This document shows, piece after piece, positions 1,334 through 1,371 of a stretch of DNA of 28,190 nucleotides. Made by a program: the position numbers and the translations under genes. Location: positions 1-28,190 of the IMG/VR virus record IMGVR_UViG_3300022169_000020; one strand, given 5' to 3'. Each line of letters opens with the position of its first letter. Position 1 is the stretch's first letter. The stretch is from a virus. Below the pieces are notes generated by a model that worked only from the letters and a program-made list of their open reading frames with translations, searched no databases and was not told the DNA's origin.

Positions 1334-1371
1334 GCCTAGGTAGCTCAGTCGGTAGAGCAGAGGACTGAAAA
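1334..1371 (+). other. attP core: 5' half of a tRNA-Phe(GAA) gene
   Basis: Thirty-eight bases match tRNA positions 1-38. The acceptor 5' strand is GCCTAGG (1334-1340), then TA. D-stem GCTC (1343-1346) pairs with GAGC (1355-1358) around AGTCGGTA. The anticodon stem 5' strand is GAGGA (1360-1364), and the anticodon loop is CTGAAAA (1365-1371) with anticodon GAA. The similarity stops exactly at the end of the loop: the following bases cannot pair with the anticodon stem, and there is no T-arm or CCA end. It is therefore not a tRNA gene but the host-identical segment of an attachment site, immediately downstream of int. The match is to generic bacterial tRNA-Phe from memory; the exact length shared with a real host is unknown. 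Confidence 0.85.

What the first reader, a model, noticed from the sequence alone, without database searches (positions are those of the whole stretch)
1334..1371. attP carries the 5' half of tRNA-Phe, so integration would swap promoters
Seen: positions 1-38 of tRNA-Phe(GAA) are present and identity ends at the anticodon loop; int lies left and RNAP right. Established: most tRNA-targeting phages carry the 3' half, so the restored tRNA keeps its own promoter; marine podoviruses integrate at tRNA genes next to int. Inference: with a 5'-half core, the left junction would be host tRNA promoter, half tRNA, then the phage RNAP genes. The right junction would be int followed by the rebuilt tRNA-Phe. 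The lysogen would then depend on phage sequence for an essential tRNA, and the host tRNA promoter would read toward the RNAP. Loss of the prophage's left end would be costly to the cell.
Basis: partly seen in the sequence, partly recalled or inferred. Interest (0 to 1): 0.75.

Follow-up and report, generated by a model that had tools for sequence, protein, structure and literature searches.

The report
Phage attachment site with half a tRNA
A marine T7-like virus carries the front half of a bacterial phenylalanine-tRNA gene beside its integrase, so that inserting into the bacterial gene would rebuild a whole tRNA, a known but uncommon arrangement already demonstrated in related ocean viruses.

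Summary
Window 1334-1371 is an exact copy of tRNA-Phe(GAA) nucleotides 1-38, between a tyrosine integrase (247-1260) and a T7-like RNA polymerase; identity stops at the last anticodon-loop base. An exact-match scan of about 85,000 species genomes found the 38-mer at 24 loci, 21 in methanotrophic Methylococcales. Repeats that covary on both sides of the core support a functional attP. Sister phages carry another host's tRNA-Phe variant or the 5' half of tRNA-Ser at the same place.

The arrangement is not new. T7-like cyanophage attP sites match the first half of tRNA-Leu, with integration shown (PMC8776855); ten isolates or genomes examined here carry 5' halves of tRNA-Leu or tRNA-Cys. In archaea the rebuilt tRNA is known to be expressed from the integrase promoter (PMC8371274). 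No sigma-70 promoter is visible within 400 bp upstream of the core, so read-through from int is the likeliest supply; P-SSP7 does have a promoter there. Capture of RNAP by the host tRNA promoter is probably a by-product: in the tRNA-Cys phages the core is reversed. No lysogen was found.

The parts
3..161 (+). 3' part of a MarR-like regulator gene cut by the window edge; the usual neighbour upstream of int in this phage type
   Evidence: open ORF; phrog_9665 transcriptional regulator E 1.5e-5; MarR then int then RNAP in the isolates
247..1260 (+). tyrosine integrase, 337 aa
   Evidence: PF00589 7.5e-14, SAM-like N-terminal domain; phrog_1 5.8e-44; R..HxxR..H..Y residues visible in the translation
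1264..1289 (+). left arm: three GTGTCC repeats, 10-bp period (1264, 1274, 1284), probable integrase arm-type sites
   Evidence: repeat search; in lineage L011-L015 they become GTGGCG/GTGGCT together with the right-hand copy
1293..1304 (.). left arm of an inverted repeat GTGGCGTGTTAA flanking the core
   Evidence: 12-nt inverted repeat, 92% complementary to 1384-1395
1334..1371 (+). attP core: tRNA-Phe(GAA) positions 1-38 (5' half)
1365..1371 (+). inferred 7-bp crossover segment CTGAAAA = anticodon loop, between GAGGA (1360-1364) and GCCTA (1372-1376; host TCCTC)
   Evidence: identity to hosts ends at 1371; inferred from symmetry of the anticodon stem in attB
1384..1395 (.). right arm of the inverted repeat TTATCACGCCAC
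   Evidence: conserved across the clade
1418..1445 (+). candidate host-type promoter of the RNAP gene, TTGTAA-16-CATAAT (TATAAT in L004)
   Evidence: scan; L004 p=0.007 and L010 p=0.047 but window p=0.13; conserved ATAATCC block
1500..1505 (+). right-hand copy of the arm-type repeat GTGTCC
   Evidence: covaries with the left repeats
1472..2302 (+). RNA polymerase N-terminal part, 276 aa; likely real start ATG 1520 with GGAGG at 1511-1515
   Evidence: RPOL_N 7.5e-14; phrog_414 positions 2-267; L012-L016 homologues start near 1520
2299..3957 (+). RNA polymerase catalytic part, 552 aa, overlaps the previous ORF by ATGA
   Evidence: PF00940 1.4e-106; phrog_414 positions 266-816; conserved split

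Best explanation
This is the attP site of a temperate-capable, T7-like (autographivirus) marine podovirus. Its tyrosine integrase crosses over in the anticodon loop of a host tRNA-Phe(GAA) gene. The phage carries the 5' half, so integration rebuilds an intact tRNA-Phe from phage nucleotides 1-38 and host nucleotides 39-76 at the int-side junction; the displaced host promoter and host 5' half end up at the RNAP-side junction. The 31 bases left of the crossover are kept because they must reproduce the host tRNA. The rebuilt tRNA is most likely transcribed by read-through from the int transcript, because no separate promoter is visible. Shown here: the sequence identity, its end point, the rebuilding in silico, conservation and target switching in relatives, and arm repeats. 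Inferred: crossover position, transcription source, actual integration.
For: Exact core and end point. In silico attR gives a complete tRNA-Phe and attL none, with four hosts. Core invariant in most of the clade while the 80 bp upstream vary. L014 has GCCCAGG, the variant found in other gammaproteobacterial hosts, and L017/L019 (integrase 78% identical) carry a tRNA-Ser(GCU) 5' half at the same position and strand. A distant lineage (L025/L028/L030) has the same core between int and RNAP. Covarying arm repeats on both sides. Ten phages with a long 5' half have no complete tRNA gene anywhere, whereas six with only a short anticodon-arm match carry a full tRNA of that isotype; Fisher p=1.2e-4, not corrected for relatedness. 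Precedents with integration shown: P-SSP7 and S-TIP37 (PMC8776855), HTVC022P at tRNA-Cys (PMC12753301). Upstream 400 bp promoter-poor in 12 of 12 members; no terminator between int and core.
Against: No integrated copy found: the phage-side att signature is absent from about 85,000 species genomes and no close integrase occurs in 301 Methylococcales genomes. The host is inferred from the core only, and the tRNA-Ser core of the sister phages does not match 61 Methylococcales genomes. The promoter test uses E. coli consensus weights and could miss another promoter type. The window is a linear fragment, so a tRNA gene could lie in the missing part, though larger relatives (up to 35 kb) have none.
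Confidence: 0.86

Rival explanations
1. Regulatory promoter capture: the 5'-half geometry was selected because integration puts phage RNAP under the host's growth-linked tRNA promoter, a built-in trigger for lytic growth.
For: int-core-RNAP order with the core in the sense direction in the window clade, L025/L030, P-SSP7, HTVC105P and S35-C6; no terminator between core and RNAP in the window; integration without stable lysogeny in T7-like cyanophages (PMC8776855).
Against: In seven tRNA-Cys phages the same kind of core is reversed, so the host promoter would read toward int; P-SSP7 has a terminator-like hairpin between core and RNAP; RNAP appears to have its own promoter in relatives.
Confidence: 0.07
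2. The 38-mer is a remnant of a captured tRNA gene or of imprecise excision, with no role in integration.
For: Imprecise excision has been proposed for complete tRNA-Leu genes near int in LUZ100 and pelagiphages (PMC10134795).
Against: Exact conservation over divergent relatives, fixed end at the anticodon loop, switch to another tRNA at the same place, flanking covarying arm repeats; tested counterparts integrate (PMC8776855).
Confidence: 0.04
3. The attP is used as described, but the rebuilt tRNA is driven by a phage promoter that the consensus scan cannot see, so promoters are replaced in kind.
For: P-SSP7 has TTGTTA-16-TATAAT at the spacing of native tRNA promoters.
Against: Window-clade upstream regions score at or below shuffles (p 0.30-0.99) while eight host promoters score p<=0.02.
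Confidence: 0.25

Closest known systems
T7-like cyanophage attP sites (P-SSP7, S-TIP37), PMC8776855
   Same: Tyrosine integrase, then core equal to the first half of a host tRNA gene (39-42 bp), then RNAP; core in the sense direction
   Different: tRNA-Leu instead of tRNA-Phe; P-SSP7 has a clear promoter upstream of the core and a terminator-like hairpin before RNAP, neither seen here
Pelagiphages HTVC022P, HTVC021P, HTVC121P, HTVC131P, HTVC201P, HTVC304P and Ran (tRNA-Cys)
   Same: 5'-half core between int and RNAP, no complete tRNA gene; HTVC022P reported to integrate at tRNA-Cys (PMC12753301)
   Different: Core reversed relative to int and RNAP
pTN3-like archaeal integrases (PMC8371274)
   Different: Archaeal elements; not tested for homology here
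tRNA-dependent lysogeny (PMC10865867)
   Same: Integrase acts within an essential host tRNA gene
   Different: Short core and a phage-encoded complete tRNA; here a 38-bp core and no tRNA gene

Membership tests
T7-like phage attP with tRNA 5' half (P-SSP7 type) | tyrosine integrase directly upstream of the core | tested here: met
   int 247-1260, core 1334
T7-like phage attP with tRNA 5' half (P-SSP7 type) | core identical to the first half of a host tRNA gene | tested here: met
   38 of 38 identical to tRNA-Phe at 24 genome loci
T7-like phage attP with tRNA 5' half (P-SSP7 type) | recombination rebuilds the tRNA | tested here: met
   in silico only
T7-like phage attP with tRNA 5' half (P-SSP7 type) | integration at the tRNA gene shown in cells | not testable with these tools
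   no lysogen found in genome collections
Classical 3'-half tRNA attP | core contains the 3' end of the tRNA | tested here: not met
   identity covers positions 1-38 only
tRNA-dependent lysogeny | short core (~10 bp) that does not rebuild the tRNA | tested here: not met
   38 bp and rebuilds
tRNA-dependent lysogeny | phage carries a complete tRNA of the same isotype | tested here: not met
   none in the window or in larger relatives; the window is a fragment
Autographivirus (T7-like) | single-subunit RNAP and T7-like replication and head genes | tested here: met
   RNAP (as two ORFs), T7-type SSB, helicase-primase, DNA polymerase A, connector, capsid, tail proteins

The most novel reading that the evidence does not exclude
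In this clade the rebuilt, essential tRNA-Phe is transcribed only as the tail of the phage MarR-int transcript, so the lysogen's Phe-tRNA supply is tied to the phage's lysogeny operon while the host tRNA promoter feeds phage RNAP: a cis-acting dependence that penalises loss of the prophage's int end. The archaeal pTN3 precedent covers the first half of this, but not a bacterial T7-like phage or the link to RNAP.
Probability: 0.15. Interest if true: 0.6.

Novelty: new member of a known kind. Interest (0 to 1): 0.33.

Why it matters
It adds tRNA-Phe (and, in sister phages, tRNA-Ser) to the known 5'-half targets of marine T7-like phages and suggests a methanotroph or related gammaproteobacterium as host. 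The comparison also shows two solutions to the same problem among T7-like phages that integrate in an anticodon loop: carry the whole 5' half of the target tRNA, or carry a short core plus a complete tRNA gene of the same isotype. That gives a simple, testable prediction for annotating such phages, and suggests tRNA-dependent lysogeny may extend beyond actinobacteriophages.

Tried and rejected
Scan of genome contigs for the phage-side att signature, to find lysogens: none. Integrase search in 301 Methylococcales genomes: only distant integrases, about 30% identical at best; a quick motif look at three of them found no tRNA pieces. Host cross-check through the tRNA-Ser core of the sister phages in 61 Methylococcales genomes: no match, so the host assignment stays tentative. 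Sigma-70 promoter upstream of the core: none. Phage promoter repeats: the conserved block at 1441-1457 occurs once in the window, so it is not a repeated phage promoter. RNA structure of the core-to-RNAP leader: no more stable than shuffles. Williams 2002, the primary paper on tRNA sublocation, is not held. Zhao 2019 on pelagiphage integration was seen only through papers that cite it.

Full report
What is there. The window is a 28,190-base linear virus record of a T7-like podovirus: RNAP, T7-type ssDNA-binding protein, helicase-primase, family A DNA polymerase, connector, capsid and tail genes. Its left end reads: end of a MarR-like gene, tyrosine integrase 247-1260, 73 bp, the 38-mer 1334-1371, about 100 bp, then RNAP. 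The 38-mer equals tRNA-Phe(GAA) positions 1-38 and ends with the last base of the anticodon loop. No complete tRNA is present.

Target. An exact scan of about 85,000 species genomes gave 24 loci, every one a tRNA-Phe gene by ARAGORN; 21 are named as Methylococcales or their symbionts, and one further MAG (L046) has upstream sequence nearly the same as Methylotuvimicrobium. In a sample of 369 genomes of the class, ten have the variant GCCCAGG and two have the exact 38-mer. All these genes continue TCCTC (TCCTT in L059) where the phage has GCCTA, GCCCA or GCCCT. The natural reading is a crossover in the 7-base loop CTGAAAA, flanked in attB by the symmetric anticodon stem GAGGA/TCCTC (inference from tyrosine integrase sites in general).

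Rebuilding. Joining the phage left flank plus 38-mer to host bases 39 onward gives a complete tRNA-Phe with four different hosts; the other junction gives none.

Is it a working attP? The clade alignment shows three GTGTCC repeats left of the core and one right of it; in the L011-L015 lineage the left repeats become GTGGCG or GTGGCT and the right copy becomes GTGGCG too, as expected for arm sites of one protein. A 12-nt inverted repeat also flanks the core. The core is invariant where flanks vary, except that L014 carries GCCCAGG, and L017/L019, with integrases 78% identical, carry the 5' half of tRNA-Ser(GCU) in the same place and direction. A distant T7-like lineage (L025, L028, L030) has the same tRNA-Phe half between int and RNAP (L030 begins after int).

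Comparison with isolates. Long 5' halves and no complete tRNA gene in the whole genome: P-SSP7, HTVC105P and S35-C6 (tRNA-Leu, sense), and HTVC021P, 022P, 121P, 131P, 201P, 304P and Ran (tRNA-Cys, reversed). Only a short anticodon-arm match, plus a full tRNA of the same isotype: HTVC019P (Cys), HTVC119P, HTVC200P, S28-C10, LUZ100 and a Limnohabitans phage (Leu). The table 0/10 against 6/6 gives p=1.2e-4, without correction for kinship, and the short cores (8-12 bases) were recognised partly by reference to the phage's own tRNA. Rfam missed the tRNA-Leu of HTVC119P and HTVC200P that ARAGORN calls, which is why the ten genomes were also scanned with ARAGORN. ProddE appears to carry a 3' tRNA portion on the reverse strand. 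This supports the view that the 5' half is there to keep the tRNA alive, not for recombination itself.

Promoters. With one scoring scheme, eight host tRNA-Phe upstream regions all show TTGAC(T/G)-17-(-10) sites (p<=0.02), P-SSP7 shows TTGTTA-16-TATAAT 19 bases before the tRNA half (p=0.007), and the window clade shows nothing above shuffles, also over 400 bp. No terminator lies between int and the core, nor between core and RNAP in the window; P-SSP7 has a hairpin there. So the rebuilt tRNA of this clade is probably fed by int read-through, as stated for pTN3-like archaeal elements (PMC8371274). RNAP may have its own promoter just upstream (strong in L004, not significant in the window itself).

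Prior knowledge. [quoted passage not shown] HTVC022P integrates at tRNA-Cys (PMC12753301). 5'-half attB with expression from the integrase promoter is described in archaea and called seldom in bacteria (PMC8371274). tRNA-dependent lysogeny covers the short-core alternative (PMC10865867). The finding is therefore a new member of a known kind, with a new target gene and a tentative new host group.

Limits. No lysogen, no junction reads, no expression data; host inferred from the core alone and not supported by the tRNA-Ser sisters; at least 14 of the 24 candidate loci have two tandem tRNA-Phe genes, so essentiality of the rebuilt copy is not given.

Noticed in passing
window 1472-3957: The T7-like RNAP is encoded as two ORFs (276 and 552 aa) with an ATGA overlap, at the same point in every clade member with that region. 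Fussvirus genomes Eyrgjafa and S30-C28 are annotated with two RNAP ORFs split within about 5 codons of the same point. No slippery heptamer is evident before the stop, so a real two-subunit enzyme made by reinitiation is likely.
   Followed up: partly
L062, L063, L074, L075, L077, L093: T7-like phages with short anticodon-arm cores carry a complete tRNA of the same isotype (five tRNA-Leu, one tRNA-Cys), mostly on the opposite strand near int: they look like users of tRNA-dependent lysogeny outside actinobacteriophages.
   Followed up: partly
L012 964-2600 downstream of the core start: The catalytic RNAP ORF of L012 is broken into two pieces (193 and 290 aa), unlike its relatives; sequencing error or decay.
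   Followed up: no
L037-L060: At least 14 of the 24 genome loci with the 38-mer hold two tandem tRNA-Phe genes about 100-175 bp apart; in several the second has no visible promoter of its own, so integration in the first could cut both off from the native promoter.
   Followed up: no
window 1441-1465: ATAATCCTTTGCTCCGCTA.CGTAG is almost invariant in the clade just upstream of RNAP, yet occurs once in the window; possibly promoter -10 plus transcript start.
   Followed up: partly
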